Under the pieces are notes generated by a model, which worked only from the letters and a program-made list of their open reading frames with translations, was not told the DNA's origin and ran no database searches. Below are positions 1 through 13,288 of a DNA stretch of 13,295 bases, piece by piece. The number at the start of each line of letters is the position of its first letter. Within the stretch, counting starts at the first letter, position 1. The DNA is from Betaproteobacteria bacterium (lineage in GTDB: Bacteria > Pseudomonadota > Gammaproteobacteria > Burkholderiales > SG8-41). Where the stretch lies: contig JANXSE010000306.1 in assembly GCA_025356695.1 (NCBI GenBank), positions 1 to 13,295 of the forward strand, written 5' to 3'. A program made the position numbers and the translations under genes.

Positions 1-375
1 AACATCGACGATGCGCCGGCCGTCGAGCAGGATCAGCGTGTTCTGCCCGCCGGTCACGCCGAAGCCGCGCAGATCGACCGTGGTGGTCGCTGCGTTGTTA
101 CCGAAAAAATCGTGAATGGCGATGCCGGCCTGCTCGGACAAGAGATCAGGCAGCGTCTTGGCGGCGCTGTTGCGAATGTCCTCGGCCGTGATGACGGTGA
201 CGTTGACCGGACGGCCCGCATCGCGGTCGGCAAAACGTGTTGCCGTGACGACAACTTCATCGGCCATCGTTACCTGCAACGGTGATTGCGCTACTGCGCG
301 CGAAAAAACAAAACACATTCCGGCAGCCGATACTCCGGCCGCCAGTCTCCTGCGGACTTCCTGGTTGAACAACAT
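1..375 (-). CDS. TonB-dependent outer-membrane receptor, N-terminal part (cobalamin-type transporter), cut by window edge
   Basis: Only the first 125 codons are present; the gene continues past position 1. The product would be an outer-membrane beta-barrel that imports a scarce ligand with energy from TonB. A signal peptide is visible: basic RRR at residues 8-10, a hydrophobic stretch, and a likely cleavage after AVA (residues 27-29). A TonB box follows (DEVVVTATR, residues 39-47), then the start of the plug domain, with LPDLLSEQAG, VDLRGFG and LILLDGRRI. I place the start at 375 because a GAGGA Shine-Dalgarno sits 6 nt upstream and the signal peptide begins directly there. The cobalamin riboswitch upstream makes a vitamin B12 or corrinoid substrate (BtuB role) likely. 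The plug sequence alone would not separate BtuB from other receptors, so I give no symbol. The barrel is not visible. Confidence 0.88.
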   Translation of the reverse strand, partial: MLFNQEVRRRLAAGVSAAGMCFVFSRAVAQSPLQVTMADEVVVTATRFADRDAGRPVNVTVITAEDIRNSAAKTLPDLLSEQAGIAIHDFFGNNAATTTVDLRGFGVTGGQNTLILLDGRRIVDV

Positions 376-377
376 GA

Positions 378-392
378 CAATTCCTCGAATTG
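378..392 (-). promoter_or_regulatory. Ribosome-binding-site hairpin of the TonB receptor gene
   Basis: The Shine-Dalgarno GAGGA lies inside a perfect inverted repeat, CAATTC-GAG-GAATTG (6-bp stem, 3-nt loop), 2 nt before the start codon. A second copy of the anti-RBS arm lies further upstream in the leader: CAATTCC at 440-446 (minus strand) is exactly complementary to GGAATTG at 378-384. Either pairing would hide the ribosome-binding site. With the cobalamin riboswitch upstream and no obvious terminator in the leader, this suggests control of translation initiation. The pairing is seen in the sequence; its regulatory use is inferred. Confidence 0.55.
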
Positions 393-505
393 ACGCACGC
401 CCGCCGCGCACGGATTGATCGCTCGAGAAAACACATCGGGGAATTGAATTCGGACCGCAACGGGCACCTGAACACCGCATCCCCGCGGCATTTCCTCACC
501 TGGGG

Positions 506-934: not shown

Positions 935-1135
935 ATGGATGCCGAACTTCGCTCGCTCGAAGATAAAGTCAATCAAGTGGTCGCGTTGTGCCAGCGCTTG
1001 CGCTCGGACAACCACGCCCTGCGCCAGCAACTTGCCAGCGCCTTGAACGACAACAAGCAGCTCGCGGAGAAAATCGGCGTAGCGTCAACGCGTCTTGAAG
1101 CCCTGTTAACGCAGATTCCGGATGAAGAAGCATGA
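935..1135 (+). CDS. zapB: ZapB-like small coiled-coil cell-division protein
   Basis: This is a 66-residue, almost wholly helical protein with heptad-like hydrophobic spacing (LRSLEDKVNQVVALCQRL, then LRQQLASAL and KQLAEKIGVASTRLEALL), as expected of a short coiled coil. It matches the small ZapB-like proteins found directly upstream of zapA in many beta- and gammaproteobacteria, which are thought to assist Z-ring assembly together with ZapA. I choose ATG 935 over the in-frame GTG at 926 because the GTG lies inside the predicted -10 box. The stop overlaps the zapA start (ATGA), so the two are probably translated together. The small size leaves the exact family less certain; synteny is the main support. 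Confidence 0.8.
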   Translation: MDAELRSLEDKVNQVVALCQRLRSDNHALRQQLASALNDNKQLAEKIGVASTRLEALLTQIPDEEA

Positions 1136-1440
1136 GCGCGGAACCCGCCGGCATGCAGATCAGTATCATGGGGCGCGATTTTCGCGTTGCCTGTGCGCCG
1201 GAAGAACAAAAATCGCTGCAGGACGCGGTCGATTTCCTCAATCGCAAGATGCAGGAGATCAAAGACCAGGGCAAGATCAACGGCCTTGATCGCATCGCCA
1301 TCATGGCGGCGCTGAACATCTCGCATGAATTTCTGACCGCGAAGGTCGGCAATTTTGATGTGTCCGAGTTTAAGCGTAGAATGAACTCAATCGAATCGAC
1401 GCTTGATCAGGCCATGGCCGATCAGGAAAAGCTGTTCTAG
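1132..1440 (+). CDS. zapA: Cell division protein ZapA
   Basis: The 102-residue product fits ZapA, which binds FtsZ and promotes bundling of protofilaments at the division site. The N-terminal domain has the typical beginning (MQISIMGRDFRVACAPEEQ, where a ZapA usually reads v.IlGr.y.v.c.peE...L). It is followed by LQDAVDFLNRKMQEI and the family's signature helix GLDRIAIMAALNISHEFL. The C-terminal part forms a coiled coil (FKRRMNSIESTLDQAMADQEKLF) that mediates dimer and tetramer formation. It overlaps the end of zapB by 4 nt and is followed by 6S RNA, the usual proteobacterial arrangement. A weak purine-rich stretch (GATGAAGAAG) precedes the start. Confidence 0.95.
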   Translation: MSAEPAGMQISIMGRDFRVACAPEEQKSLQDAVDFLNRKMQEIKDQGKINGLDRIAIMAALNISHEFLTAKVGNFDVSEFKRRMNSIESTLDQAMADQEKLF

Positions 1441-1695: not shown

Positions 1696-1723
1696 AAAAT
1701 GCGGCTTGCGCCGCATTTTTTTT
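1696..1723 (+). terminator. Rho-independent terminator after 6S RNA
   Basis: A perfect 10-bp stem AAAATGCGGC / GCCGCATTTT with a TTGC loop is followed directly by T's (eight in a row at 1716-1723). It should end the zapBA-6S transcript. Only 33 bp remain before the EVE gene start and I see no promoter there, so the downstream genes may depend on readthrough or on a promoter inside the preceding region. Confidence 0.92.
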
Positions 1724-1756
1724 GCGACTGACTCATTGCAGGACAAGGGGCAAATC

Positions 1757-2212
1757 ATGCGTTACTGGCTGATGAAATCCGAACCCTCCGAATTCGGTAT
1801 CGACGACTTCGCCAAGGCGCCGGGCAAAAAAACCTCGTGGTTCGGCGTGCGCAATTATCTGGCGCGCAATTTCATGCGCGACCAGATGCAGCTCGGCGAC
1901 CAGGCGTTTTTCTATCATTCAAGCTGCGAAGTGCCCGGCATTGCCGGCATCGTCGAGATCTGCAAACTCGCGCATCCCGATGTCACCCAGTTCGACCCGA
2001 AGAGCAAATACTACGACCCCAAGGCCACGCCGGAGAAGCCGCGTTGGTTCAATGTCGATGTCAAACTGGTGAAAAAAACGCGCCTGTTGCCGCTGTCCGA
2101 GCTGCGCGAGCAGAAAAAGCTCGCCGGCATGCAGCTTCTGCAGCGCGGCAACCGGCTGTCGATCACGCCGGTCGATGCAGACGACTGGAAATTCATCCTC
2201 GGACTGCTCTAA
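1757..2212 (+). CDS. EVE domain-containing protein
   Basis: The 151-residue product is a single EVE domain, related to the PUA fold. It has the family's start (MRYWLMKSEPSEFGIDDF), then SWFGVRNYLARNFMR, the strand LGDQAFFYHSS, GIAGIVEI, and PRWFNVDVKLV. EVE proteins are thought to bind modified bases in DNA or RNA; eukaryotic THYN1 is a homologue. The role of free-standing bacterial members is not established. The start is supported by an AAGGGG Shine-Dalgarno about 7 nt upstream. In-frame upstream codons (from 1706) overlap the terminator hairpin and do not look like protein. It lies just behind the 6S terminator and 30 bp before the amidohydrolase, with which it may be co-transcribed. Confidence 0.9.
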   Translation: MRYWLMKSEPSEFGIDDFAKAPGKKTSWFGVRNYLARNFMRDQMQLGDQAFFYHSSCEVPGIAGIVEICKLAHPDVTQFDPKSKYYDPKATPEKPRWFNVDVKLVKKTRLLPLSELREQKKLAGMQLLQRGNRLSITPVDADDWKFILGLL

Positions 2213-2242: not shown

Positions 2243-3238
2243 ATGGCCACCCCGAAAACCATCGACACCCACGCCCACTACTTTCCCGAGTCCTACATCA
2301 AGTTGATCCAGGAACACGGCAAGCGTGTCGGCACCACCGTCACCACCGACGACAAGGGCATCACCTTCATCCAGGTCGGCCTGCATCTGCGCACCGGCCC
2401 GATTACGCGCCTCTTTATCGATCTCGATGCGCGCATCAAGGACATGGACCGCCGCGGTGTCGGCATGCACGCGCTATCACTGACGCAGCCGATGGTCTAC
2501 TGGGCGCACGATGAACTGGCGACTCAACTGTGCATCGCCTTCAACGATGCGATCAGCGCCGCCCATCGGGCGCACCCCGAGCGCTTCATCGGCTTCGCCT
2601 GCCTGCCGTTCCAGAACGCACAACTCGCCCTCGAAGAACTCGAGCGCGCCGCCAGGCTCCCCGGCGTCAAGGGCGTTTACATGGCCACCGCGGTGCGCGA
2701 CAAGGAATTGTCGGACCCGAGCTTCTTCCCGGTTTACGAGCGCATCGCCGAACTCGGGCTGCCGATCTTCCTGCATCCGATGATGATCAACAACGAACGC
2801 CTCAAGCAGTTCTACCTGATCAACCTCTGCGGCAACCCGTTCGACACCGCGATCGCCGCCTCGCACCTCATCTTCGGCGGCGTGCTGGACGCTTTTCCCA
2901 AACTCGAAGTCAGTCTGCCGCACGCCGGCGGCGCGCTGCCGATCCTGCGCGGCCGCCTCGACCGCGGCTTTCATGTGCGCAGCGAATGCAAGACGATCCC
3001 GCGGCCGCCGAGCGAGTATCTCAAACGCTTCACCTACGACACTATCAGCTATAACGAAGACCAGATGGACGACCTGATCAAACTCGTCGGCATCGACCGT
3101 ATCATGATGGGCAGCGATTTCTGCTTCGACATTGCCTATGAAGAACCGGTCAAGTTCGTCAACGGCATGAAATCGCTCGACGAGGCGCAGCGCGAAAAAA
3201 TCCTCTGGGGCAATGCCGCGCGTTATCTCAAGCTGTAA
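2243..3238 (+). CDS. Amidohydrolase family protein (ACMSD-like metal-dependent hydrolase or decarboxylase)
   Basis: The 331-residue product is a TIM-barrel amidohydrolase of the amidohydrolase-2 group, which includes 2-amino-3-carboxymuconate-6-semialdehyde decarboxylase and gamma-resorcylate decarboxylase. Expected metal ligands are present: the HxH motif in DTHAHYF (H10, H12), H178 in IFLHPMM, H227 in LPHAGG, and D292 in MGSDFCFD. FIGFACLPFQNAQLALEELERA and the C-terminal LWGNAARYLKL are also typical. Family members act on ring-derived carboxylic acids, often by decarboxylation without a redox step; the substrate here cannot be told. An AAGGA Shine-Dalgarno lies 6 nt before the ATG. It converges on the end of the F420 operon, 57 bp away, and may be part of the same catabolic neighbourhood; that link is inference. 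Confidence 0.88.
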   Translation: MATPKTIDTHAHYFPESYIKLIQEHGKRVGTTVTTDDKGITFIQVGLHLRTGPITRLFIDLDARIKDMDRRGVGMHALSLTQPMVYWAHDELATQLCIAFNDAISAAHRAHPERFIGFACLPFQNAQLALEELERAARLPGVKGVYMATAVRDKELSDPSFFPVYERIAELGLPIFLHPMMINNERLKQFYLINLCGNPFDTAIAASHLIFGGVLDAFPKLEVSLPHAGGALPILRGRLDRGFHVRSECKTIPRPPSEYLKRFTYDTISYNEDQMDDLIKLVGIDRIMMGSDFCFDIAYEEPVKFVNGMKSLDEAQREKILWGNAARYLKL

Positions 3239-3295: not shown

Positions 3296-4255
3296 TTACG
3301 GCAGGCCGACGCCGGCCGCTTTCAGCGCGCGGCCGACATTCGCGATTTCCGCCTTCATCATGGCGGTCAATTCATCGGGGGAGCCCGGCGCTGCCTCAAT
3401 GCCGGCTTGCAGAAAAAGCTCCGTGACCTCCACCGACTGCAGCGCGCGCACGACCTCGCGGTTCAGCCGCGCAATGATTGCCGCCGGCGTTTTCGCCGGC
3501 GCGAACAGGGCATGCAGGGATTCCGAAGCAAAGCCGGGCACGCCGGAATCAGCGATTGTTGGCACGCCCGGCACGATGGCGGAGGGCCGCGCGCTGCCCG
3601 TTGCAAGTGCCCGCAGCCGCCCCGACTTCACGTGCGGCGCAGCGCCGCTCGGGGTGGCGAAAATCGCCTGCACTTCGCCGCTCATCACCGCGGTCATGGC
3701 GGGCCCGGTGCCCTTATAAGGAATGCGCACGATGTTCACGCCGGCCAGGTGGTTGAACAAAACCGCGGCGATGAAATTGGAGCTGCCGGTTCCGCCCACT
3801 GAATAATTAAGTTCACCCGGCTTGGCTTTGGCCAGCGCGATCAACTGTCTGACATTCTTCACCGGCAAGGAGGGGTGCACAACCAGGATGGTCGGCGATC
3901 TATCCAACAATGTGATCGCGACGAAATCTCCGAGCGGATCGTATGTGACTTTTTCCAGCAGCGGCCCGATCCAATGGGCGCCGCCGGTCACCAACAACGT
4001 ATAACCATCCGGCGCCGCCCTCGACACCAGATCGGCCAGCAGTGCGGTCGGTCGATTATCGATGACGACTTGCTGACCGAGCGTGCCGGAAAGGCTGCGC
4101 GCGACAACGCGCGCCGGGTAATCATTGCCACCGCCGGCAGGAGAAGTCACGACGCGAATCGCCCTGAGCGGATAATCCTGGCCCGAGGCCGCGCCGGCCC
4201 CAAGCCCGATCAGGGCGAACGAGGTCAAAAATGCGCCGAATTGTTTTTTCGCCAT
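3296..4255 (-). CDS. Bug/TctC-family periplasmic solute-binding protein (third in operon)
   Basis: The 319-residue product is an extracytoplasmic solute receptor of the tripartite tricarboxylate transporter type. It has a signal peptide (MAKKQ, hydrophobic core, likely cleavage before QDYP), the YPLRAIRVVTSPAGGGNDYPAR first loop, APDGYTLLVTGG, GGTGSSNF, VRIPYKGTGPAMTAVMSGEVQ and GRLRALATGS. Proteins of this kind hold di- or monocarboxylates or related solutes. I choose ATG 4255 over an in-frame ATG at 4276 because it gives a normal signal peptide and has GGTGGAAG just before it. Oddly, the second ligand loop, usually NRPGAGGxIGA, reads NRPTALLADL and is about three residues shorter than in the cofC-coupled paralogue. 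No TctA or TctB membrane partner is in the window. It is the last gene of the operon. Confidence 0.92.
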   Translation of the reverse strand: MAKKQFGAFLTSFALIGLGAGAASGQDYPLRAIRVVTSPAGGGNDYPARVVARSLSGTLGQQVVIDNRPTALLADLVSRAAPDGYTLLVTGGAHWIGPLLEKVTYDPLGDFVAITLLDRSPTILVVHPSLPVKNVRQLIALAKAKPGELNYSVGGTGSSNFIAAVLFNHLAGVNIVRIPYKGTGPAMTAVMSGEVQAIFATPSGAAPHVKSGRLRALATGSARPSAIVPGVPTIADSGVPGFASESLHALFAPAKTPAAIIARLNREVVRALQSVEVTELFLQAGIEAAPGSPDELTAMMKAEIANVGRALKAAGVGLP

Positions 4256-4291
4256 ACTTCCACCCCGATACTTCAAGCGCCGCAGCAGCGC

Positions 4292-4873
4292 CTATTTCAA
4301 GGCCGCCTGCAGTTCCTTCGCGCCGACCACGTAGCACAGCGTCGGCAGGATGTTCCTGATCGTGAACTCGTGGTTCTCGATGGTGTTGCTGGCGCAGGCA
4401 TCGCGCACCAGAAACACGCGGTAGCCCATGTCGCTGGCGTGGCGCGCCGTGGCTTCGACCACGTAGTTGGTCCACAACCCGACCAGGATAATGGTGTTGA
4501 CGTCGGCGTTCTGCAACGCCTGGTCGAGGTTGGTCGTCAGAAACGGATCGACGCAGGTCTTGTTCAGCACCAGTTCGTTTTTCAGCGGTTTGACGCGCGG
4601 GTCGATTGCGGCGCCCCTGGTGCCGATGATGAGCTGGCGCTTCTTGCGCAGGCCGTCCCACAGCGGATTGTCGCGCGGCAGATCGAGAAAATCCGCGCGC
4701 ACCGAGGCGGTGATGTGTATCACATTGGCCTTGCGGCGGCGCGCCGTTTTCAGCACGTCCACCATGTTTTCCATGATACGGTTCTTCTTCAACCCCGGCG
4801 TAATGTCGACCAGATCTTTTTGCACGTCGAGCAGCAGCAAGGCGGTGCGTTTGGCATCGATTTTCAATTTCAT
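4292..4873 (-). CDS. Isochorismatase-fold protein lacking the usual catalytic cysteine
   Basis: The 193-residue product has the Rossmann-like fold of the isochorismatase/cysteine hydrolase family: ALLLLDVQKDLV (with the catalytic Asp, D16), the VIHITASVRADF strand, LVLNKTCVDPF (K105 at the expected Lys position), and IILVGLWTNYVVEATARHASDMGYRVFLVRDACAS. In nicotinamidases and N-carbamoyl hydrolases the nucleophilic cysteine sits in TNxCVEATAR; here this position is Val138 (TNYVVEATAR). Hydrolysis through a thioester is therefore unlikely at this site. Isochorismatases proper also lack the cysteine, so a vinyl-ether-type or other hydrolysis remains possible, as does a changed or lost activity. 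It lies between two Bug genes (40 nt after one, 36 nt before the other), suggesting a role with the solute these receptors bind. The real substrate is unknown. Confidence 0.85.
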   Translation of the reverse strand: MKLKIDAKRTALLLLDVQKDLVDITPGLKKNRIMENMVDVLKTARRRKANVIHITASVRADFLDLPRDNPLWDGLRKKRQLIIGTRGAAIDPRVKPLKNELVLNKTCVDPFLTTNLDQALQNADVNTIILVGLWTNYVVEATARHASDMGYRVFLVRDACASNTIENHEFTIRNILPTLCYVVGAKELQAALK

Positions 4874-4913
4874 TACATTCCCCGTTAGTTGATGATTGCG
4901 CGCCGGGCGCGCC

Positions 4914-5885
4914 CTAATTGATTTGTTTGCCCTTGAGGCCGGCGGCTTCGACGACCTTGCCCCAGGTCGCCAGCTCCTGCCGCATCAGCGCCGTGAATTC
5001 CTCCGGCGTCGAGCCAATCACTTCGACCGCGATTTCGGTTAGGCGGTCTTTGACCTGCGGCAGCTTCAGGGCCTGCAGCAGGCTATCGCGCAATTTGGAA
5101 GTGATTGCGCGCGGCGTGCCCTTTGGCGCCAGCGGCCCGTACCAGCCGGCGGCATTGAACTGATAGCCGTTTTCGGCAATCGTCGGCAGATCGGGCATCA
5201 GTGCCGACCTTTTTTCGCTGCCAACAGCGAGTGCGCGCAGCCGCCCGGCCCGCACCTGCGGCAGCGCCGCCGACAAACCATTGAACATCATGTCGACCTC
5301 ACCGGCCAGTAGCGCCGTCATGCCGGGCCCCGCGCCTTTGTACGGCACGTGCGTGATCTTCACGCCGGCGGTGAGATTGAAGAGTTCGCCGGCCATGTGG
5401 ATACCGACGCCGGTACCGCCCGAGGCAAAATTCAATTTGCCCGGCTGCGCCTTCGCCAGCGCGACGAGCTCCTTCACCGTTTTCGCGGCGACGTTCGGAT
5501 GCACCAGCAGCACATAGGGTGCGGCGGCGGCCAGCGAAACCGGTGCAAAATCCTTCAGCGTGTCGTACGGTGTCGACACATTGATCTGCGGCACGATCAC
5601 CAGCGGCCCCGAGAAGCCGAGCAGGATCGTATAACCGTCGGGCAGCGCTTTCGCCACCATCTCGGCGCCGATCTGTCCGGCGGCCCCGGCGCGATTGTCA
5701 ATGACGATTTGCTGGCCGAGCGCTTCGGACCATGCCGGCGACAGAATGCGCGCGATCACATCAACCGGCCCGCCGGCGGATGACGGCGCAATCAGCCGGA
5801 TCGGTTTGTTCGGGTAATTCTGTGCGCCTGCCGCACCCGCCGCCAACGCGGCGGCCAGCCAGCATCCTATTGGCATTATTTTCAT
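4914..5885 (-). CDS. Bug/TctC-family periplasmic solute-binding protein, coupled to cofC
   Basis: The 323-residue product is a tripartite tricarboxylate transporter receptor with a clear signal peptide (likely cleavage at AAGAAGA before QNYP). It has the complete family loops: YPNKPIRLIAPSSAGGPVDV, GQQIVIDNRAGAAGQIGAE, LPDGYTILLG, GGTGVGIHMAGELF, ITHVPYKGAGPGMTALLAGEVDMMF and GRLRALAVGS. The start codon overlaps the cofC stop by 4 nt (ATGA), and a GGAGG Shine-Dalgarno lies within the end of cofC at a spacing of 7 nt. This tight coupling to an F420 biosynthesis gene is unusual. The bound solute cannot be predicted; family members take carboxylic acids, amino acids, nicotinate-like and aromatic compounds. 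No transporter membrane subunits are nearby. Confidence 0.95.
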   Translation of the reverse strand: MKIMPIGCWLAAALAAGAAGAQNYPNKPIRLIAPSSAGGPVDVIARILSPAWSEALGQQIVIDNRAGAAGQIGAEMVAKALPDGYTILLGFSGPLVIVPQINVSTPYDTLKDFAPVSLAAAAPYVLLVHPNVAAKTVKELVALAKAQPGKLNFASGGTGVGIHMAGELFNLTAGVKITHVPYKGAGPGMTALLAGEVDMMFNGLSAALPQVRAGRLRALAVGSEKRSALMPDLPTIAENGYQFNAAGWYGPLAPKGTPRAITSKLRDSLLQALKLPQVKDRLTEIAVEVIGSTPEEFTALMRQELATWGKVVEAAGLKGKQIN

Positions 5886-6553
5886 AGTCCCGCCTCCCCC
5901 ATGTGACTTTCGCCGGGCGGTAATATCCCGCGCGGAATTCTAGCATCGCGTTGCGCCATCCATTCCGCATAATCCTGCGGTAGATCGAGATCAAAAGCGA
6001 GTTCGTCACGCTCATAACGGATACTGCGACAACCCGCGTGCGCAAAAGCGTCGAGATGACGCACAAAGCTATCCGCGCCAAAGTGAAAGATATTGCGCGC
6101 ATCCGCATCCAGCGCCAGCGCATTGGTGCCGCTGCCCGCGCGATCGGGCGCAATCGCCGCGCAACCTGTCGCCGCGGCAAATTCGGCAAAGCCGCTCAGC
6201 GCCGCGGCAGACAATCGCGGCAGATCACAGGCCACCACCAGCAATTTCACGCCGCCGCGCGCGACCACAGCGGCTGCGCCGAACGTCAGCGCCGCATTCA
6301 AATCGCCACCGGCCGGCTCACGCAGGCCCTGCGCGCCAGCCGCCCGCGCGCAAGCCAGCGCTTCGTCACAGGGACTGACCACCACGCATCGCGCCAGATC
6401 GCCCTGCCACGCGTCGATGACTGCGAGCGTATGCGTCAGCAAATGCCGGTTGAGGGCAGCACGCGCCTTCGCATCAAGCACGGCCGCAAGGCGCGATTTG
6501 CCGCTGGCAATGCCGCTCACCGGCAGCAGCGTCCACCAGCCGGAGGGCCTCAT
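5882..6553 (-). CDS. cofC: CofC-type guanylyltransferase of F420 biosynthesis
   Basis: The 223-residue cytosolic enzyme activates a three-carbon phosphorylated acid (2-phospholactate, phosphoenolpyruvate or 3-phosphoglycerate, depending on lineage) with GTP, giving the guanylated donor used by CofD. Nucleotidyltransferase features are visible: LLPVSGIASGKSRLA near the N-terminus, where CofC proteins usually have PvK...aKSRLa; CVVVSPCDEAL; the metal-binding VVACDLPRLS (CDLP at 109-112); and PDRAGSGTNALAL (136-148), a good CofC signature. The C-terminal FHFGADSFVRHLDAFAHAG and FDLDLPQDY are also typical. The start overlaps the cofD stop by 4 nt. The sequence does not tell me which acid is used. 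The last 20 or so residues look poorly conserved and carry the downstream gene's ribosome-binding site. Confidence 0.9.
   Translation of the reverse strand: MRPSGWWTLLPVSGIASGKSRLAAVLDAKARAALNRHLLTHTLAVIDAWQGDLARCVVVSPCDEALACARAAGAQGLREPAGGDLNAALTFGAAAVVARGGVKLLVVACDLPRLSAAALSGFAEFAAATGCAAIAPDRAGSGTNALALDADARNIFHFGADSFVRHLDAFAHAGCRSIRYERDELAFDLDLPQDYAEWMAQRDARIPRGILPPGESHMGEAGL
5893..5900 (-). promoter_or_regulatory. Strong Shine-Dalgarno of the cofC-coupled Bug gene
   Basis: GGGGGAGG on the minus strand contains GGAGG at 7-nt spacing from the ATG at 5885, and lies wholly inside the last codons of cofC. It shows that the start at 5885 is real and that the Bug gene can recruit ribosomes itself as well as by coupling to cofC. 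Confidence 0.7.
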
Positions 6554-7500
6554 TTGAAATCCTTTGCCAGCAGCCGCGTAAAACCGACCACCTCGCGCGC
6601 CAGCGTTGCGCTCTTCCTGCGGTCGCGCATGATGGTGTCTGTCACCAGTACCCTGCGCCCCATCGTTTCAATTGCAGATTGCAGTTTCGCATCGGCGCGG
6701 TCAATCACCCAGCCGTCGACCAGCCTGCCGTAGTGACGCGCCATGCCCGCTGCACTCGCATCGAGCTTGAGTTCGCGCATCATCTTCGCCGCTGGCCCCT
6801 TGAGCGCCGCGCCACCAACGATGGGCGACACCGCCACCACCGGAAAATTGCGCTGCTTCAGCCACGCGCGTATTGCCGGCACGGCGAGGATCGGCGCCAC
6901 GCTGACGAAGGGGTTCGACGGGCAAATCACCAGCCCGGTGACTTTGCCGCTGCGCATCAGGTGCTGCAATGCCGGCGCCGGTTTCGCCTTGCGGCCACCG
7001 GCAAACCGAAAACCCTGCACGCGCGGGCGACAGCGCTCGCGGACGAAATAGTCCTGAAACGCCAACTCGCCTTTCGCAGTGCGCACGCGTGTACGCACCG
7101 GCGTGTCGCTCATCGGCAGCAGTGCGTGGCGGATGCCGAAGCGCTGCGCCAGATCGGCCGTGACTTCCGATAAGGTCGCGCCCGCGCGCAAAGCCTGCGT
7201 GCGCAAGACGTGCACGGCGAGATCACGATCGCCGAGATTGAACCAATCGGCGCCACCCAAGGCTTTCAGCGCCGCCATGAATTGCCAGCGCTCGTCAGCG
7301 CGGCCCCAGCCCGTCTTTGAATTGTTGACGCCGGCCAGCGTGTACATGACGGTGTCGAGATCGGGCGAGACATGCAGGCCGAGGTGTTCGAAATCGTCGC
7401 CCGTGTTGACGACGACCGACAACTGCGACGGCGGCAGCACCGCGGCGAGACCGACGGCGAGACGCGCGCCACCCACACCGCCTGCCAGCGCAACGATCAT
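6550..7500 (-). CDS. cofD: CofD: lactyl/phosphoacyl-FO transferase (2-phospho-L-lactate transferase)
   Basis: The 316-residue enzyme moves the phosphoacyl group from the CofC product to FO, the deazaflavin chromophore, forming F420-0 or a variant with another linker. Clear family motifs: LAGGVGGARLAVGLA near the N-terminus; NTGDDFEHLGLHVSPDLDT (32-50), the most characteristic CofD block; YTLAGVNNSKTGWGR; WFNLGDRDLAVHVLRT; MSDTPVRTRVRT; ICPSNPFVSVAPILAVP; and AVSPIVGGAALKGPAAKMM near the C-terminal third. Length fits bacterial CofD/FbiA. Four-nucleotide overlaps with cofE upstream and cofC downstream show a tightly coupled cofE-cofD-cofC unit. Confidence 0.97.
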   Translation of the reverse strand: MIVALAGGVGGARLAVGLAAVLPPSQLSVVVNTGDDFEHLGLHVSPDLDTVMYTLAGVNNSKTGWGRADERWQFMAALKALGGADWFNLGDRDLAVHVLRTQALRAGATLSEVTADLAQRFGIRHALLPMSDTPVRTRVRTAKGELAFQDYFVRERCRPRVQGFRFAGGRKAKPAPALQHLMRSGKVTGLVICPSNPFVSVAPILAVPAIRAWLKQRNFPVVAVSPIVGGAALKGPAAKMMRELKLDASAAGMARHYGRLVDGWVIDRADAKLQSAIETMGRRVLVTDTIMRDRRKSATLAREVVGFTRLLAKDFK

Positions 7501-8261
7501 CGGAACAAATCCTCGGTCGTTGGCCGCAACAGTTCACGCGCCGAACTCTCGCGCAGCGGGTACGGAAATCCGCGCACCAGCACCGCGGGGCAACCTTCGG
7601 CGGCCTGCCCCATCAGCAGCGACGCCGCGGCCGCCAGTTCATCGGCCGCGGCAATCTGCGTAACCTGCAACGCACGGCTCTCGCGATCGGGCTGGCCACG
7701 CAAATCGATCAACGCCGGCACACCGGCCACGCCGATCGCCACGCCGGTCACACCATTGCGCCAGGCGCGGCCGAAGCTGTCGTTGATGACGACGCCGATG
7801 TGCGCACCGGCCGCCGCTTTGATCTGTTTTTGCAGCCGGCGCGCCGAGGCATCCGGATCTTCGGGCAGCAGTAAAACGGTTTCTGCCATCGTCGCCCCTG
7901 GCACATTCGATTGATCGATGCCGGCGCTCGCCATCACGCAGCCGAGCCGGTGTTCGACGATCAACACATTCGGTTTGGCACGCAGCACCGTGCGCGATTC
8001 GCGCAGCATGCATTCGACGAGACGCGCATCCTTGTGGGTGGTTGCCGCCAGTTCAAGCGCACGCGCCGAGGGTTCGACATCCGCAAGGCGCACGCTGCGC
8101 GCCTCGGCCTTGGAAACGATTTTCTGCGCGACGACGAGGATGTCGTTGTCGGCAAGCTGTAAACCGCCGCGTGCAACGGCCGCCAGCAGCAGTGCGACGA
8201 GATCGTCGCCAGCGGCGATTTCCGGCAGGCCTTCGAGCGCCAGCAGCCTCAGTTCGCGCAT
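7497..8261 (-). CDS. cofE: CofE: coenzyme F420-0:L-glutamate ligase (single-domain)
   Basis: The 254-residue enzyme adds L-glutamate residues to F420-0 with GTP, giving F420 with a short gamma-glutamyl tail. Family motifs are GLPEIAAGDDL (11-21), ILVVAQKIVSKAEA (41-54, with the conserved Lys and Ser), AGIDQSNVPG (113-122) and NDSFGRAWRNGVTGVAIG (160-177). Its length matches the archaeal CofE form. It lacks the C-terminal FMN-binding nitroreductase domain fused to the ligase in actinobacterial FbiB. That matters because this domain reduces the dehydro-F420 made when phosphoenolpyruvate is the CofC substrate. The start follows the reductase gene by 15 nt and has only a weak GATAGAG ribosome-binding site. 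Confidence 0.96.
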   Translation of the reverse strand: MRELRLLALEGLPEIAAGDDLVALLLAAVARGGLQLADNDILVVAQKIVSKAEARSVRLADVEPSARALELAATTHKDARLVECMLRESRTVLRAKPNVLIVEHRLGCVMASAGIDQSNVPGATMAETVLLLPEDPDASARRLQKQIKAAAGAHIGVVINDSFGRAWRNGVTGVAIGVAGVPALIDLRGQPDRESRALQVTQIAAADELAAAASLLMGQAAEGCPAVLVRGFPYPLRESSARELLRPTTEDLFR

Positions 8262-8276
8262 CGCTCTATCAATAAC

Positions 8277-8948
8277 TCAGTCGCGCGGCACGCCAGTGAT
8301 GCGGATGCCCGCACCCGGCACCTTGTAGCGCTGGTTGATCGCAATCAACACCGAGGTCAGCGCCTCGGCCGCCGCCGAATTGGCCAGCACGCCGGCGTGC
8401 CAGCCGTGCATGCCGGCATCGCGCGCCAGACCGATCACCGTTTCCCGCGCCGCCACGTCATCGCCGCAGACCAGCACGTCGCAATCAACGGCGTGCGCCA
8501 GATCCTTGAGATGCGCCGCCGACACGTTTTGAAAAGCCGAGACGACTTTGACCGTTTCACCGAGCCGGCTCTGTAGCGCCACCACGGCCGAGCCCCCGAG
8601 CGGCAATTGCGCGCGGCTCACCTTGGGCGGCACCAGCGGCACGGTGACATCAACGAGAATTTTTCCGGCGAGTTGTTCGCGTATCGCCTCGGCCATCGCC
8701 AGCTGCACAGCAAACGGTACCGCCAGCACGACAATCGCCTGCGCCGCCGCCTCGGCATTGGAACCGCCGCGCAATTGTCCGCGTCCGGCCAGCAATGCGT
8801 TTAATTTCTGCACGGCTTCCTGCGCCTTCTCCGCCGTGCGCGAACCGACGATGACGTCGTGCCCCGCGGCCGCCCAGCGCAACGCGAGTCCGCCGCCCTC
8901 CTGGCCGCTGCCGCCGATGACGCCGATAGAAAGTTTTTCTGTGCTCAT
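8277..8948 (-). CDS. npdG: NADPH-dependent F420 reductase
   Basis: The 223-residue enzyme transfers hydride between NADPH and F420, here most likely making F420H2 for reductases. Evidence: an N-terminal dinucleotide-binding fold IGVIGGSGQEGGGLALRWAAAGHDVIVGSRT, in which GGSGQEG (12-18) and GSRT (35-38, the NADP-phosphate pocket) are typical of Fno/NpdG proteins; VVLAVPFAV; LVDVTVPLVPPK; VVSAFQNVSAAHL; and CDVLVCGDD. The C-terminal GWHAGVLANSAAAEALTSVLIAINQRYKV with GAGIRITG is also characteristic. It lies between fbiC (17-nt gap) and cofE (15-nt gap). No F420-dependent glucose-6-phosphate or alcohol dehydrogenase is present, so this is the only visible route to reduced F420 in the window. Confidence 0.94.
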   Translation of the reverse strand: MSTEKLSIGVIGGSGQEGGGLALRWAAAGHDVIVGSRTAEKAQEAVQKLNALLAGRGQLRGGSNAEAAAQAIVVLAVPFAVQLAMAEAIREQLAGKILVDVTVPLVPPKVSRAQLPLGGSAVVALQSRLGETVKVVSAFQNVSAAHLKDLAHAVDCDVLVCGDDVAARETVIGLARDAGMHGWHAGVLANSAAAEALTSVLIAINQRYKVPGAGIRITGVPRD

Positions 8949-8965
8949 GGTTATCCGTTCTTCCC

Positions 8966-11347
8966 TTACGCCGCCGCGATCATGCGCCGGCGCAGCGGCA
9001 CGGCCATTGTCGGCAGTGCCTCCAGCGGCGCGGCGGCATAAGAACGCTGCACGCGTTCCGCCACTGGCGTCCCGTATAAAGTCGTGCGCTGCTGCGGCAG
9101 GCGGCCGACGCTGCGGATCAACTCGTCCATTGCTGCAGGCGCCATTTCCTGTCCGTGCTGCGTGCCGGCCGCGCGCGAAATGCTTTCGTTCATCAGGGTG
9201 CCGCCCAGATCATTGGCGCCGGCCGCCAACGCGGCGGCGACACCCGCCTCGCCCATCTTCACCCACGACACCTGGATATTCGACAGCACGGGGTTCAACA
9301 CCAGCCGCGCCACTGCGTGCATCAGCAGCGCCTCGCGAAAAGTCGGCCCGCGGCGCGCACGGCCGCGCAGATAGACCGGCGCTTCCATATGCACAAAAGG
9401 CAGCGGCACGAATTCGGTGAAGCCCTGCGTTTTCTCCTGCAGCGCGCGGATGCGCAGCAGATGCCGCGCCCAATGCCGCGGCGCCTCAACGTGGCCGAAC
9501 ATGATAGTGGCCGTCGAGCGCAGGCCGAGTTCGTGCGCGGCCTTCATGATGCAGAGCCATTCATCCGTCGTCACCTTGCCGGGGCAGATCACCGCGCGAA
9601 TTTCATCGTCGAGGATTTCCGCAGCCGTGCCCGGCAGCGTGCCCAGTCCGGCGGCGATCAGTTCCCGCAGATAGTCGCGCACCGGCATGCCCAGAGTTTG
9701 TGCACCGTGCGCAACTTCCAGCGGCGTGAAGGCGTGCACATGCATCTGCGGCGCGGCGCGTTTCACCGCACGCACGATCTCGAGATAGGTGTCGCCCGTG
9801 TAATCCGGATGAATGCCGCCCTGCATGCAGACTTCACCGGCGCCGCGCGCCCACGCCTCGCTGACACGCCGTTCGATTTCAGAAAGCGGCAGATCGTAGG
9901 GCACGCCGCGCAACGCCGCGGCATGCGTGCCCTTGGAAAACGCACAGAAGGTGCAGCGATAGCTGCAGATATTGGTGTAGTTGATGTTGCGGTTGACAAC
10001 ATAGCGCACAGTGTCGCCTGCCGTTTCGCGCCGTAGTGTATCGGCCTCGGCGCAGACGAAATGAAACTCGTCGCCGCGGCCGGCGAACAGACGTTCGATC
10101 TGCATCTCGCTGAGTGTCGCGCCATCGCGCGCGCGCGAAACGATATCGCGCAGCTCTGTTGCAATGCCGCCGCCGCGCGGCAGCGCCGCCGGCGTGACGT
10201 TCAGCCCCGGCGACCACACGTCGTCACGCGCATAACCTTCGGCGTCAATATTGCGAAGAATGTCGGTGGCGATCTCCGGCACATGCCATTGCTGCACGGC
10301 ACGGCAGTAGGCAGGATAACTCGGCAGGCGCGCCTGCAAAATCTTGCCGCGCGCTGCGGTAATCGCGTGCAAGCGCTCAATCGCCGGCCACGGCGCTTCA
10401 GGATTGACGTGATCGGGCGTGACCGGCGAGATGCCACCCCAGTCGTTGATGCCAGCGTCGATGAGTTCGCCGCAATCGTCGCCGCTCAAATTCGGCGGCG
10501 CCTGGATGTTCATCTGCGGCCCGAGCAGCAAGCGCGCAATGGCGATCGTCCACAACAATTCTTCGCGCGGCGCGTCGGCGGTATCCGCCATGCGCGTGTC
10601 CGGTTTGGCACGGAAGTTCTGAATGATGACTTCCTGGATATGGCCGTAACGTGCGTGCAAATCGCCGATCGCCCGCAGCGCATCAATGCGCTCGCGGCGC
10701 GTTTCGCCGATGCCGATCAGGAGACCGGTCGTAAACGGCACTTTTAATTCGCCGGCCAGCCGCAGCGTTTCCAGACGCAACGCCGGCTGCTTGTCGGGTG
10801 AGCCAAAATGCGGGCCGCCGCGTTCGCACAGACGTTCGGCCGCACTTTCGAGCATCATGCCCTGCGACGCAGAAACCTCACGCAAACGCGCCATATCGTC
10901 GCGCGTCATGACACCCGGATTGACGTGCGGCAGCAAACCGGTTTCGCGGCGCACCCGCTCGCACATCGCCACCAGATAATCGATCGTGCTCGTGCATCCC
11001 AAGGCAGCGAGTTCATCGCGCACGACCTTGTAGCGCAGCTCGGGTTTGTCGCCAAGCGTGAACAGCGCTTCGTGACAACCGGCGTCGCGGCCGGCCCGCG
11101 CGATGGCAAGTACCTCGTCCGCCGTCAGAAAGGCGTTGCGTCCGGGCTGCGGCGCGGTGGCAAACGTGCAGTAATGACAGCTATCGCGGCACAGCCGCGT
11201 CAGCGGGATAAAAACCTTGCGTGAATACGAAACGATGGCGCCGTGACCGGTGTCGCGCAGGGCCGCGGCCTGCGGCATGAGTTCCGCCGCGCCGGCGGCA
11301 ACCCAGCGTTCGATCGCTGCTTCGCTCAACGCATCACTGTTTGACAC
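8966..11347 (-). CDS. fbiC: FO synthase, fused CofG-CofH (FbiC type), bifunctional radical SAM enzyme
   Basis: The 793-residue enzyme builds FO, the deazaflavin core of F420, from 5-amino-6-ribitylamino-uracil and tyrosine. Two radical SAM halves are present. The N-terminal CofG half (about 1-385) has its cluster motif at C53/C57/C60 (LCRDSCHYCTF), then LFTLGDKPELR, GLLIGIGETRRER and NWGG-like NDWGGISPVTPDH. The C-terminal CofH half (about 395-793) has C461/C465/C468 (NICSYRCTFCAF), VCMQGGIHPDYTGDTYLEI, HAFTPLEVAHGA, LPGTAAEILDDEIR and ATIMFGHVE. This order and fusion is that of bacterial FbiC; archaea usually have two proteins. It is somewhat shorter than the actinobacterial enzyme. The start is GTG at 11347, overlapping the preceding Bug gene by 14 nt, with AAGG a few bases before it. 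Confidence 0.97.
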   Translation of the reverse strand: MSNSDALSEAAIERWVAAGAAELMPQAAALRDTGHGAIVSYSRKVFIPLTRLCRDSCHYCTFATAPQPGRNAFLTADEVLAIARAGRDAGCHEALFTLGDKPELRYKVVRDELAALGCTSTIDYLVAMCERVRRETGLLPHVNPGVMTRDDMARLREVSASQGMMLESAAERLCERGGPHFGSPDKQPALRLETLRLAGELKVPFTTGLLIGIGETRRERIDALRAIGDLHARYGHIQEVIIQNFRAKPDTRMADTADAPREELLWTIAIARLLLGPQMNIQAPPNLSGDDCGELIDAGINDWGGISPVTPDHVNPEAPWPAIERLHAITAARGKILQARLPSYPAYCRAVQQWHVPEIATDILRNIDAEGYARDDVWSPGLNVTPAALPRGGGIATELRDIVSRARDGATLSEMQIERLFAGRGDEFHFVCAEADTLRRETAGDTVRYVVNRNINYTNICSYRCTFCAFSKGTHAAALRGVPYDLPLSEIERRVSEAWARGAGEVCMQGGIHPDYTGDTYLEIVRAVKRAAPQMHVHAFTPLEVAHGAQTLGMPVRDYLRELIAAGLGTLPGTAAEILDDEIRAVICPGKVTTDEWLCIMKAAHELGLRSTATIMFGHVEAPRHWARHLLRIRALQEKTQGFTEFVPLPFVHMEAPVYLRGRARRGPTFREALLMHAVARLVLNPVLSNIQVSWVKMGEAGVAAALAAGANDLGGTLMNESISRAAGTQHGQEMAPAAMDELIRSVGRLPQQRTTLYGTPVAERVQRSYAAAPLEALPTMAVPLRRRMIAAA

Positions 11348-12296
11348 CGGTCGCCTTGACCACGTCGGCCCACGTCTTCATGTCCTGCTCGAGCATCTGC
11401 TGCATCGCTTCGGGCGAGAGCTTCATCGCCTCGGCAGCATTGGCCGCAAAAATATCGCGCGATTTCGGCGCCTCGACAGCCTTGGCAAATTCGGCATTGA
11501 GCTTTTCGATGATTGCGCGCGGCGTGTTGGCCGGCGCAAATACAGCGGCGATCACCGCCGCGTCCACGCCTTTGACCGTTTCGCCGAGCGCCGGAATGTC
11601 AGGGAAAGCGGCGGCACGTTTGTCGGCGGTGATGCCGATAGCGACCAGCCGTTTGGAACGCACATATTCGATGGCCGCCGGTATGGTGTTCACGATGAGC
11701 GACAGTTCGCCGGTCAGCAGCGATATGGTGGACGTCGCGCCGCCCTTGTAATTGACCATTTCGAGGTTGATGCCGGCGCGCATGCGGAATTTCTCCGCCG
11801 CCATGTGCGTAACGGTGCCGACACCCGAATTGCCGCAGGTAATGGTGCCCGGACTCCGCTTCGCCAGGGCAATGAGTTCTTTCGCCGACTTAACACCCAG
11901 CGACGGATGCGCCACCATGATCAGCGGCGACGACGACACCGGCGCCACGGCAACAAGATCGCGCTGCGGGTTGTAGTTCAGCTTCGAATACAACGACGGC
12001 GTGATCGCGTGTGTCGACATGTCGGTGAAGAGCAGCGTGTAACCGTCGGCCGCCGATTTGGCGACGAGCTCGGCGGCGATCGTGGTGCCCGCACCCGGGC
12101 GGTTCTCGACAATCACCTGCTGGCCGAGGCTCTTGGTCATTTCCGCCGCGGTAACGCGCGAAAAGGTATCGGTAGCGCCGCCGGTGGCGAAGGCCACGAT
12201 CAGCCGCACCGGTTTTGTCGGATAGGTTTGCGCGCCGGCACTGCCGCACATTGTTGCGGCAACGGCTGCGCTGATAACCGCGATCTTCCTTTGCAT
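11334..12296 (-). CDS. Bug/TctC-family periplasmic solute-binding protein (first in operon)
   Basis: The 320-residue product is a tripartite tricarboxylate transporter receptor. It begins with a signal peptide (MQRKIAVISAAVAATMCGSAGA, likely cleavage before QTYP). Family blocks follow: YPTKPVRLIVAFATGGATDTFSR, GQQVIVENRPGAGTTIAAELV, AADGYTLLFTDMS, VAHPSLGVKSAKELIALAK, CGNSGVGTVTHMAAEKF, MVNYKGGATSTISLLTGELSLI and SKRLVAIGIT. The ligand-facing loops differ from those of the other two Bug proteins here (FATGGATDTF versus PSSAGGPVDV and SPAGGGNDYP), so the three may bind different solutes. It has a strong Shine-Dalgarno, follows the LLM gene by 38 nt, and its last codons overlap the start of fbiC. 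No TctA or TctB partner genes are present. Confidence 0.95.
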   Translation of the reverse strand: MQRKIAVISAAVAATMCGSAGAQTYPTKPVRLIVAFATGGATDTFSRVTAAEMTKSLGQQVIVENRPGAGTTIAAELVAKSAADGYTLLFTDMSTHAITPSLYSKLNYNPQRDLVAVAPVSSSPLIMVAHPSLGVKSAKELIALAKRSPGTITCGNSGVGTVTHMAAEKFRMRAGINLEMVNYKGGATSTISLLTGELSLIVNTIPAAIEYVRSKRLVAIGITADKRAAAFPDIPALGETVKGVDAAVIAAVFAPANTPRAIIEKLNAEFAKAVEAPKSRDIFAANAAEAMKLSPEAMQQMLEQDMKTWADVVKATGVKQ

Positions 12297-12303
12297 GTTC
12301 GGT

Positions 12304-12310
12304 CTCCTCC
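12304..12310 (-). promoter_or_regulatory. Strong Shine-Dalgarno of the first Bug gene
   Basis: GGAGGAG on the minus strand, 7 nt before the ATG at 12296, is the strongest ribosome-binding site in the operon. It predicts high synthesis of this periplasmic receptor compared with the cofactor enzymes downstream, which start with weak or coupled sites. Confidence 0.7.
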
Positions 12311-12334
12311 GGTTGCTGCGGATTGATTGTGGTT

Positions 12335-13288
12335 TTATTTTTTTGTGAAAGCCGGCGCCACGTCGCGCACAAAAGTCTCCATCTGCGCGACCTGATCAGT
12401 ACCCGCGATGCGTATGCACAAATCGGTGACCCCTGCCGCCTCATACAGTTTCAGCGTCTCGATCACTTTGTCCACCGGACCGAGGCCCATCAGGCCGCGG
12501 TAATTCACACCACCACCGTAGTATTCGGCGAGAAACTTCGCGGTGTCGGCTTCGGCCTTCGCCACATCGTTCTCAATACGCACCGTCGTATACACGCACA
12601 TCGGAAAATCCGGCAGCGACCGGTTTTTTTTCGCCAGCGCTTCATTGCACAGTTCGCGCAGCTTGCGGCAATCGTCGTCGGTCAGATAGGTGGTGATGAT
12701 ACCGTCGCCGAGCCGCGCGAAACGGTCGATCTGCGCCGGGATGAATTCGCCGCGGTTGCCGGCGGTCATCAGCACTGGCGGGCCGGCTTCGTTCCACGGC
12801 AGCGGACCGATGGTGTGCTCGGTCAGTTTGAAATCGCTGCCCTGATAAGTCACGGGCTCGCCGCTCCACAGCTTGCGCCAGACGATCACATGTTCTTCGA
12901 GGTCCTTCACGCGCCTTTTATGCACGCGGCCGCAGGCCTCCCATTCTCGTTCAATCGCCGGCAGCTTCCAGCCGACGCCGAGCCCGAGCACCAGCCGCCC
13001 CTGCGAAATCTGGTCGATGTTGGCAAGCGCACCGGCGAGCACCGTGGGCTGGCGCAACGCCGGCAACAGAATTGCGGTGCCGAGACGCGCGCGTTTGGTG
13101 ATGGCGGCGAGATAAGCCAGTGTCGTCAGCGGTTCGAGCCGCGGCTTGGCGACGATGCTGTCGCCGACCCAGACATCCATGCCGGCTTCGTCGGCTATGC
13201 GCGCCATCGTCCAGCACTGCTCGACCGGCGGACGCCGCGCCGATTGAATCACAACACCCCGGTGGGGCAACAACACGCCCAATCTCAT
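12335..13288 (-). CDS. LLM-class (luciferase-like) oxidoreductase, probably F420-dependent
   Basis: The 317-residue product is a TIM-barrel of the bacterial luciferase-like family, whose members use FMNH2 or F420H2. Family features are the MRLGVLLPHRG start strand, ARIADEAGMDVWVGDS, PRLEPLTTLAYLAAITKRARLGTAILLPALRQP, and the diagnostic DQISQGRLVLGLGVGW (92-107). This is followed by ERVHKRR-like GRVHKRRVKDLEEH and the C-terminal AGVTDLCIRIAG. Being first in an F420 biosynthesis operon favours F420 as the cofactor; the sequence alone does not decide between the two flavins. Its substrate is unknown; relatives reduce or hydroxylate nitroaromatics, ketones and sugar phosphates. Only 7 nt are visible upstream, so a start further upstream cannot be excluded, though the start strand fits the family well. 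Confidence 0.9.
   Translation of the reverse strand: MRLGVLLPHRGVVIQSARRPPVEQCWTMARIADEAGMDVWVGDSIVAKPRLEPLTTLAYLAAITKRARLGTAILLPALRQPTVLAGALANIDQISQGRLVLGLGVGWKLPAIEREWEACGRVHKRRVKDLEEHVIVWRKLWSGEPVTYQGSDFKLTEHTIGPLPWNEAGPPVLMTAGNRGEFIPAQIDRFARLGDGIITTYLTDDDCRKLRELCNEALAKKNRSLPDFPMCVYTTVRIENDVAKAEADTAKFLAEYYGGGVNYRGLMGLGPVDKVIETLKLYEAAGVTDLCIRIAGTDQVAQMETFVRDVAPAFTKK

What the first reader, a model, noticed from the sequence alone, without database searches (positions are those of the whole stretch)
3296..13288. Ten-gene operon joining complete F420 biosynthesis, an LLM oxidoreductase, an isochorismatase-fold protein and three Bug solute receptors
Seen: ten genes on the minus strand with gaps of at most 40 nt and overlaps of 4 and 14 nt. 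Established: FbiC, CofC, CofD and CofE suffice to make F420, NpdG-type reductases make F420H2, LLM proteins often use it, and Bug proteins bind periplasmic carboxylates. F420 is classically archaeal and actinobacterial and much rarer in proteobacteria. Inference: the operon is a dedicated module in which captured solutes are metabolised with F420H2, with cofactor synthesis induced together with uptake and catabolism. I know of no described pathway with this gene set.
Basis: partly seen in the sequence, partly recalled or inferred. Interest (0 to 1): 0.8.

Follow-up and report, generated by a model that had tools for sequence, protein, structure and literature searches.

The report
F420 operon with its own oxidoreductase
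A proteobacterium carries, as one tight gene row, everything needed to make the rare cofactor F420 plus one likely user enzyme and periplasmic receptor proteins, which gives a testable clue to why such bacteria make F420.

Summary
The ten minus-strand genes are real and lie where reported. FbiC, NpdG, CofE, CofD and CofC pass NCBIfam equivalog cut-offs, so a complete F420 route plus NADPH:F420 reductase is encoded. Of 399 genomes in the nearest held relative's order, 26 have cofD over its cut-off. The window-type LLM occurs in 10, its Bug1 neighbour in the same 10, all cofD-positive; in one genome the pair is far from cofD. These genomes are related, so the association is less independent than the count suggests. 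Three Bugs in ten genes is unremarkable: 28 of 212 genes sampled in the nearest relative are Bugs, and 27 of 104 ten-gene runs hold three or more. The isochorismatase-fold gene was found only in the closest relatives and lacks the family's nucleophilic cysteine (121 of 121 sequences). Best reading: a catabolic module supplying F420H2 to a dedicated LLM hydride transferase; substrate unknown.

The parts
12335..13288 (-). LLM-class oxidoreductase (luciferase-like, probable F420-dependent hydride transferase)
   Evidence: PF00296 148 bits; best NCBIfam TIGR03619 F420_Rv2161c 141.7 bits, below its cut-off 166.9; orthologue in 10 of 399 genomes, all cofD-positive
11334..12296 (-). Bug1, TctC-family periplasmic solute-binding protein that goes with the LLM and F420
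   Evidence: PF03401 221 bits; orthologue in the same 10 of 399 genomes as the LLM; nearest solved sequence, narrowly, Bug27
8966..11347 (-). fbiC (CofG+CofH fusion), FO synthase
   Evidence: NF006687 1131 bits, cut-off 1018
8277..8948 (-). npdG/fno, NADPH-dependent F420 reductase
   Evidence: TIGR01915 197.6 bits, cut-off 149.8
7497..8261 (-). cofE, F420-0:L-glutamate ligase (no fused nitroreductase domain)
   Evidence: TIGR01916 283.2 bits, cut-off 180.65; 254 aa, only PF01996
6550..7500 (-). cofD, phospholactate transferase
   Evidence: TIGR01819 311.8 bits, cut-off 257.45
5882..6553 (-). cofC, guanylyltransferase with 2-PL/PEP-type rather than 3-PG-type residues
   Evidence: TIGR03552 121.4 bits, cut-off 105; L, L, G at the M91, C95, S162 positions of the 3-PG enzyme
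4914..5885 (-). Bug2, TctC-family solute-binding protein
   Evidence: PF03401 248.6 bits; orthologues also in genomes without a cofD match (G065, G109, G208), within 4 kb of the amidohydrolase
4292..4873 (-). isochorismatase-fold protein without the cysteine nucleophile (V138)
   Evidence: PF00857 135.5 bits; D16 in 120 of 121, K105 in 121 of 121, V138 in 121 of 121
3296..4276 (-). Bug3, TctC-family solute-binding protein; in this position in L001 and L002, no match in L080
   Evidence: PF03401 196.5 bits; loci compared
2243..3238 (+).
   Evidence: PF04909 133 bits; ACMSD is the nearest solved sequence; orthologue in 9 of the 10 LLM-positive genomes

Best explanation
The gene row is a catabolic module that makes its own F420. 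FbiC, CofC, CofD and CofE build F420, probably the 2-phospholactate/PEP type and not 3PG-F420; NpdG reduces it with NADPH; the LLM takes hydride from F420H2 and reduces an unsaturated or aromatic small carboxylate in the cytoplasm. Bug1 binds that compound or a relative of it in the periplasm, handing it to a TctAB pump encoded elsewhere or acting as a sensor. Products then pass to an ACMSD-like decarboxylase and, judging by relatives, to SMP-30, CoA-transferase and enoyl-CoA hydratase steps. Shown by sequence: gene identities, complete pathway, conserved order, LLM-Bug1-F420 co-occurrence. Inferred: F420 as the LLM's cofactor, direction of the reaction, substrate class, role of Bug1, order of later steps.
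For: Five biosynthesis/reduction enzymes above equivalog cut-offs. LLM orthologue (73-96% identity, next best 38%) in 10 of 399 genomes and Bug1 orthologue (56-98%) in the same 10, all among the 26 cofD-positive genomes; hypergeometric 2e-13, not corrected for relatedness. In G276 the adjacent LLM-Bug1 pair and cofD lie on different contigs, each at least 27 kb from its contig's nearer end, so there the association is not close linkage. G003 has a single LLM match, the operon's own, though this is a 3.0-Mb and perhaps incomplete genome. The ACMSD-like orthologue (71% or more) is in 9 of the 10 LLM-positive genomes; 14 of its 18 genomes (one a fragment) are cofD-positive. SMP-30 (90-93%), ECH (67-72%) and CaiB (80-81%) recur near the LLM in L003, L142 and L155 as in L001.
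Against: The LLM falls below the TIGR03619 cut-off, and its fold matches FMN and F420 enzymes alike, so cofactor identity is not shown. 16 of 26 cofD-positive genomes lack this LLM, so F420 must have other uses there. All LLM-positive genomes sit in one 22-row part of the cofD tree (support 82/87), so shared ancestry explains part of the co-occurrence. Only the 5 best first-look candidates per genome were scored. Many genomes look like metagenome bins, so absences may be gaps. The amidohydrolase also keeps its EVE/ZapA neighbours away from the F420 genes. No substrate, transcript or F420 has been measured.
Confidence: 0.5

Rival explanations
1. General F420 supply: the operon makes F420 for several unrelated oxidoreductases across the genome, and LLM and Bug genes sit there by history rather than shared function.
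For: 16 of 26 cofD-positive genomes lack the window-type LLM; G004 and G005 have 15 and 26 LLM matches; Bug genes are 28 of 212 sampled genes in G001; LLM-positive genomes are related.
Against: LLM and Bug1 occur in the same 10 genomes and only with cofD, in G276 far from cofD; G003 has a single LLM match.
Confidence: 0.28
2. FMN-dependent LLM monooxygenase: the LLM uses FMNH2 and O2 in a degradation route, and the cof genes serve something else.
Against: No flavin reductase among the ten proteins; the best-scoring NCBIfam models are F420-type; 10 of 10 co-occurrence with cofD.
Confidence: 0.12
3. Bug1 as a sensor only: it reports a periplasmic ligand to a regulator and does not feed transport, so the link between LLM substrate and Bug ligand is regulatory. 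This can hold together with the best explanation.
For: 3-6 TctA matches against at least 133 TctC genes per genome in G001-G005; BctC of Bordetella acts in signalling (PMC5812351, passages).
Against: No regulator among the genes identified in the window; TctB and TctC genes lie near the LLM in G105 (L153).
Confidence: 0.2

Closest known systems
Actinobacterial picrate/nitrophenol degradation with F420H2-dependent LLHT hydride transferases (npd genes)
   Same: An LLM-family hydride transferase fed with F420H2 in a degradation route (PMC8498797, passages; that NpdG belongs to that gene set is recalled).
   Different: Here the whole F420 biosynthesis pathway is in the same row, with TctC receptors and an ACMSD-like neighbour, in a proteobacterium; no nitroaromatic link is known.
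3PG-F420 cluster of Mycetohabitans (Paraburkholderia) rhizoxinica
   Same: Betaproteobacterial F420 biosynthesis cluster with fbiC, cofC, cofD, cofE (PMC11104420, passages incl. a figure legend).
   Different: That cluster is drawn with ribA and an ABC transporter, and no F420-dependent oxidoreductase genes were recognised in that bacterium; here NpdG and an LLM are present and CofC lacks the Ser critical for 3-PG.
F420 biosynthesis clusters with neighbouring LLHT genes in other bacteria
   Same: LLHT is among the genes named in a gene-context figure legend of PMC8498797; L007-L010 and L012 (titled Rhodospirillales, Roseomonas, Acetobacteraceae, Alphaproteobacteria) also have LLM genes near fbiC.
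   Different: Those LLMs are 24-35% identical to the window's, and no LLM-Bug1-fbiC order was seen there.
Orphan Bug/TctC receptors (Bug27, Bug69, BctC, AdpC)
   Same: TctC family, most without TctAB beside them (PMC5812351 and PMC11452294, passages).
   Different: Bug1 goes with F420 genes; its ligand is unknown. Bug27, a quinolinate binder, is its nearest solved sequence only by a small margin over BugD.

Membership tests
Complete F420 biosynthesis pathway | FbiC (or CofG+CofH), CofC, CofD, CofE all present | tested here: met
   All four above NCBIfam equivalog cut-offs
Complete F420 biosynthesis pathway | F420 actually made by the host | not testable with these tools
   Needs LC-MS or fluorescence
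3PG-F420 producers | Ser (or Thr) at the S162 position of CofC, critical for 3-PG; M91 and C95 implicated | tested here: not met
   Window reads L, L, G; 0 of 48 cofC ORFs aligned (some repeats of one genome) have Ser there, 43 Gly, 5 Arg (residues from PMC8764529, passages)
PEP/dehydro-F420 route with fused reductase (FbiB-type) | Nitroreductase-like domain fused to CofE | tested here: not met
   CofE is 254 aa with PF01996 only; a separate nitroreductase elsewhere was not searched
F420-dependent LLM (LLHT) | Bac_luciferase family and fold | tested here: met
   PF00296; fold matches
F420-dependent LLM (LLHT) | Match to a named F420 subfamily above its cut-off | tested here: not met
   Best is TIGR03619, 141.7 bits against 166.9
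F420-dependent LLM (LLHT) | Uses F420 rather than FMN | tested here: inconclusive
   Fold ties between the two kinds; co-occurrence with cofD 10 of 10
Tripartite tricarboxylate transporter | TctC receptor | tested here: met
   PF03401 in three proteins
Tripartite tricarboxylate transporter | TctA and TctB encoded with the receptor | tested here: not met
   None among the ten; in G001 all 6 TctA matches lie on other contigs than the operon
Isochorismatase-like cysteine hydrolase | Asp-Lys-Cys triad | tested here: not met
   D16 in 120 of 121 and K105 in 121 of 121, nucleophile position Val in 121 of 121
ACMSD-type amidohydrolase-2 | HxH, His, His, Asp metal and catalytic residues | tested here: met
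   All align with the ACMSD chain 4igm; which residues count is recalled
ACMSD-type amidohydrolase-2 | Same substrate as ACMSD | not testable with these tools
   No NCBIfam match at E 0.001

The most novel reading that the evidence does not exclude
A self-contained 'bring your own cofactor' catabolic module: F420 is made in these bacteria chiefly for one LLM that reductively dearomatises a pyridine- or benzene-type carboxylate captured by Bug1, after which an ACMSD-like decarboxylase and CoA-dependent steps degrade it. It would assign a physiological use to F420 in free-living Betaproteobacteria, for which the papers seen here give none.
Probability: 0.15. Interest if true: 0.75.

Novelty: new variant of a known kind. 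Interest (0 to 1): 0.5.

Why it matters
A 2021 review lists why Proteobacteria make F420 as unanswered and says no experiments on its role outside Actinobacteria had been done (PMC8498797, passages); a 2024 study notes that genes for F420-dependent oxidoreductases could not be found in the betaproteobacterium M. rhizoxinica (PMC11104420, passages). An LLM-Bug1 pair that was seen only with F420 genes names a candidate user enzyme and a candidate ligand-binding protein that can both be expressed and screened, so the open question becomes testable. It might also add an F420H2-dependent enzyme of use in biocatalysis.

Tried and rejected
Three Bugs as evidence of a dedicated uptake module: rejected as stated. 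Twelve 20-kb stretches of G001 (contigs C2-C6 and C8-C11, large ones, not a random draw; I had already seen one search's list) gave 28 Bugs in 212 called genes of 100 aa or more, by an HMM built from 80 Bug ORFs at E 1e-15; 27 of 104 ten-gene runs hold three or more. My gene caller misses genes, so the fraction is rough.

Fold comparison to decide FMN or F420: no decision, ties. Promoter and terminator scan: nothing above shuffles. PF04075 search: silent in the controls too, so uninformative. PF01243 gave 2-4 matches per genome, not sorted into FMN and F420 kinds.

3PG-F420 was considered because a betaproteobacterium makes it; CofC residues speak against it. Five of the 48 ORFs read Arg at the S162 position and are probably out of register.

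Cysteine-hydrolase chemistry (biuret, maleamate) for the isochorismatase-fold protein: rejected because the nucleophile is absent. Isochorismatase-type chemistry as in PhzD or VibB was not tested beyond fold ties.

My first gene calls by longest ORF picked wrong-strand ORFs in this GC-rich DNA; replaced by tblastn labels plus a codon-score caller, which still misses some genes (for example the amidohydrolase in L163).

In one search, 11 of 37 matching genomes were below the cut-off and not counted as positive. LLM, Bug1 and amidohydrolase counts use E thresholds 1e-40, 1e-80 and 1e-60 and score at most 5 first-look candidates per genome. The cofD tree has one very long branch (G304) and puts all LLM-positive rows in one 22-row part. 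The Bug2 search covered 43 hand-picked genomes. The isochorismatase search covered 320 genomes, a different draw from the 399.

Literature: the searches listed no paper whose title or abstract start shows this gene set; (F420, Burkholderiales, luciferase-like, TctC; three of four) returned none. Subscription journals are mostly not held, so this does not prove absence from print. Ney et al. 2017 was not read. Papers seen: passages only of PMC8498797, PMC8764529, PMC6279831, PMC11104420, PMC11452294 and PMC5812351; the rest as listings.
Full report
OBSERVATION. Pfam and NCBIfam identify them as LLM, TctC (Bug), FbiC, NpdG, CofE, CofD, CofC, TctC, isochorismatase-fold and TctC; the five F420 proteins exceed curated equivalog cut-offs. 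The window ends 7 nt past the LLM start, so the start of the unit is not seen. No whole genome is held for the window.

RELATIVES. L001 (83-98% identity over the ten proteins) and L002 have the full order LLM-Bug1-fbiC-npdG-cofE-cofD-cofC-Bug2-isochorismatase fold-Bug3, then convergent amidohydrolase, EVE and ZapA; L080 has the same without a Bug3 match. L003, L004 and L115 have LLM-Bug1-fbiC-npdG-cofE-cofD-cofC-Bug2 with LLM 74-75% and Bug1 77-79%; L125 has it without Bug2. No isochorismatase-fold match lies in the fetched part of these four, though L003 ends soon after Bug2. A DLH gene follows Bug2 in L003, L004 and L115, and a second LLM follows DLH in L004 and L115. In L118 and L124 the LLM sits next to npdG with no Bug1 or fbiC between. 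Another lineage (L122, L128, L131, L132) has fbiC-npdG-cofE-cofD-cofC with an asparaginase-like gene beside it and, in L128 and L132, a 49% amidohydrolase, and no window-type LLM in the fetched stretch.

CO-OCCURRENCE. In 399 genomes of G001's order (G001 holds L001), cofD is over its cut-off in 26. The LLM orthologue at 73-96% is in 10, next best 38%. Bug1 (56-98%, one match per genome at E 1e-80) is in the same 10. All 10 are cofD-positive; hypergeometric 2e-13 before any correction for relatedness. At most 5 first-look candidates per genome were scored, so misses are possible. In G276 the two contigs are 80 and 102 kb, and the LLM-Bug1 pair and cofD lie at least 27 kb from the nearer end of theirs, so they are unlinked at close range; in G334 and G186 at least one contig is short; in G174 both pieces lie at contig ends, so linkage is open; in G145 and G105 the LLM is next to npdG but Bug1 is on another contig. 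In the cofD tree all LLM-positive rows lie in one 22-row part (82/87): 3 scattered among 8 in one sub-clade, the others in the sister sub-clade of 14. So shared ancestry explains part of the pattern, while within that part the LLM comes and goes. The reverse does not hold: 16 of 26 cofD-positive genomes lack this LLM.

CONTROL ON BUGS. Each of five relatives has at least 133 TctC genes, the number at which scoring stopped, against 3-6 TctA matches. In 240 kb of G001, 28 of 212 called genes are Bugs and 27 of 104 ten-gene runs hold three or more. So Bug adjacency alone means little here; only the Bug1 orthologue pattern is informative. Bug2 orthologues occur also in genomes without a cofD match, G065, G109 and G208, within 4 kb of the amidohydrolase.

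PARTNER OUTSIDE THE GIVEN COORDINATES. The plus-strand gene 2243-3238 is an amidohydrolase-2, nearest by sequence to ACMSD, with the metal and catalytic residues aligned. Orthologues at 71% or more occur in 17 of 399 genomes plus one fragment; 14 of these 18 are cofD-positive and 9 of the 10 LLM-positive genomes have it. Part of its conservation is chromosomal: EVE and/or ZapA lie beside it in L158, L159, L160, L172 and L173, where the F420 genes are about 10 kb away or on another contig, which weakens the inference that it belongs to the pathway.

UPSTREAM GENES. In L001, SMP-30 family (PF08450), enoyl-CoA hydratase and CaiB CoA-transferase genes precede the LLM on the same strand. SMP-30 at 90-93%, ECH at 67-72% and CaiB at 80-81% recur in L003, L142 and L155, with CaiB about 0.8 to 7 kb from the LLM. 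CaiB scores best against succinate-glutarate CoA-transferase but below its cut-off (483 of 750). They may lie just off the window; this was not seen.

WHICH F420. CofC lacks the Ser shown to be critical for 3-phosphoglycerate (PMC8764529, passages). No nitroreductase domain is fused to CofE. So classical F420 from 2-phospholactate, or from PEP with a separate reductase, is more likely than 3PG-F420.

KNOWN AND NEW. F420-using LLM enzymes in degradation (picrate) are known in actinobacteria, and LLHT is among the genes in a gene-context figure of the 2021 review (PMC8498797, passages). What is new here, as far as ten literature searches show, is the conserved LLM-Bug1-F420 set in this order. 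I class it as a new variant of a known kind.

Noticed in passing
window 4292-4873: Isochorismatase-fold family, some members of which public records name cysteine hydrolase, with Val at the nucleophile position in 121 of 121 sequences and an invariant Cys107 near Lys105.
   Followed up: partly
L004:16436-20533, L115:11227-15309, L116:4035-5965: Downstream of Bug2 lie a DLH hydrolase and a second LLM, in L004 and L115 also an octopine-dehydrogenase-like protein, in place of the isochorismatase-fold/Bug3 pair.
   Followed up: partly
L128:6911-8901, L132:10019-12022: An asparaginase-like gene and a 49% amidohydrolase lie beside F420 genes in a lineage without the window-type LLM in that stretch.
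   Followed up: no
L153:5598-7171: TctB and a divergent TctC gene lie about 2 kb from the LLM in G105, on the other strand, a case of transporter parts near this LLM.
   Followed up: no
genomes G001-G005: Very large TctC expansion: at least 133 per genome, 28 of 212 sampled G001 genes.
   Followed up: partly
L001, L003, L070 record titles: Bins titled Chitinophaga pinensis, Bordetella parapertussis and Klebsiella pneumoniae carry F420 loci; the titles look doubtful for their content.
   Followed up: no
L175 (G208) 4463-8459: Bug2 (66%), DLH (88%) and an amidohydrolase fragment (80%) cluster in a genome where no cofD match was found.
   Followed up: no
window 1-480 (-), 1132-1440 (+), 1706-2212 (+): A TonB-receptor-like start (name recalled), a ZapA-like gene (65.7 bits, below its cut-off) and an EVE-like gene (name recalled) flank the module; their order with the amidohydrolase recurs in relatives.
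   Followed up: partly
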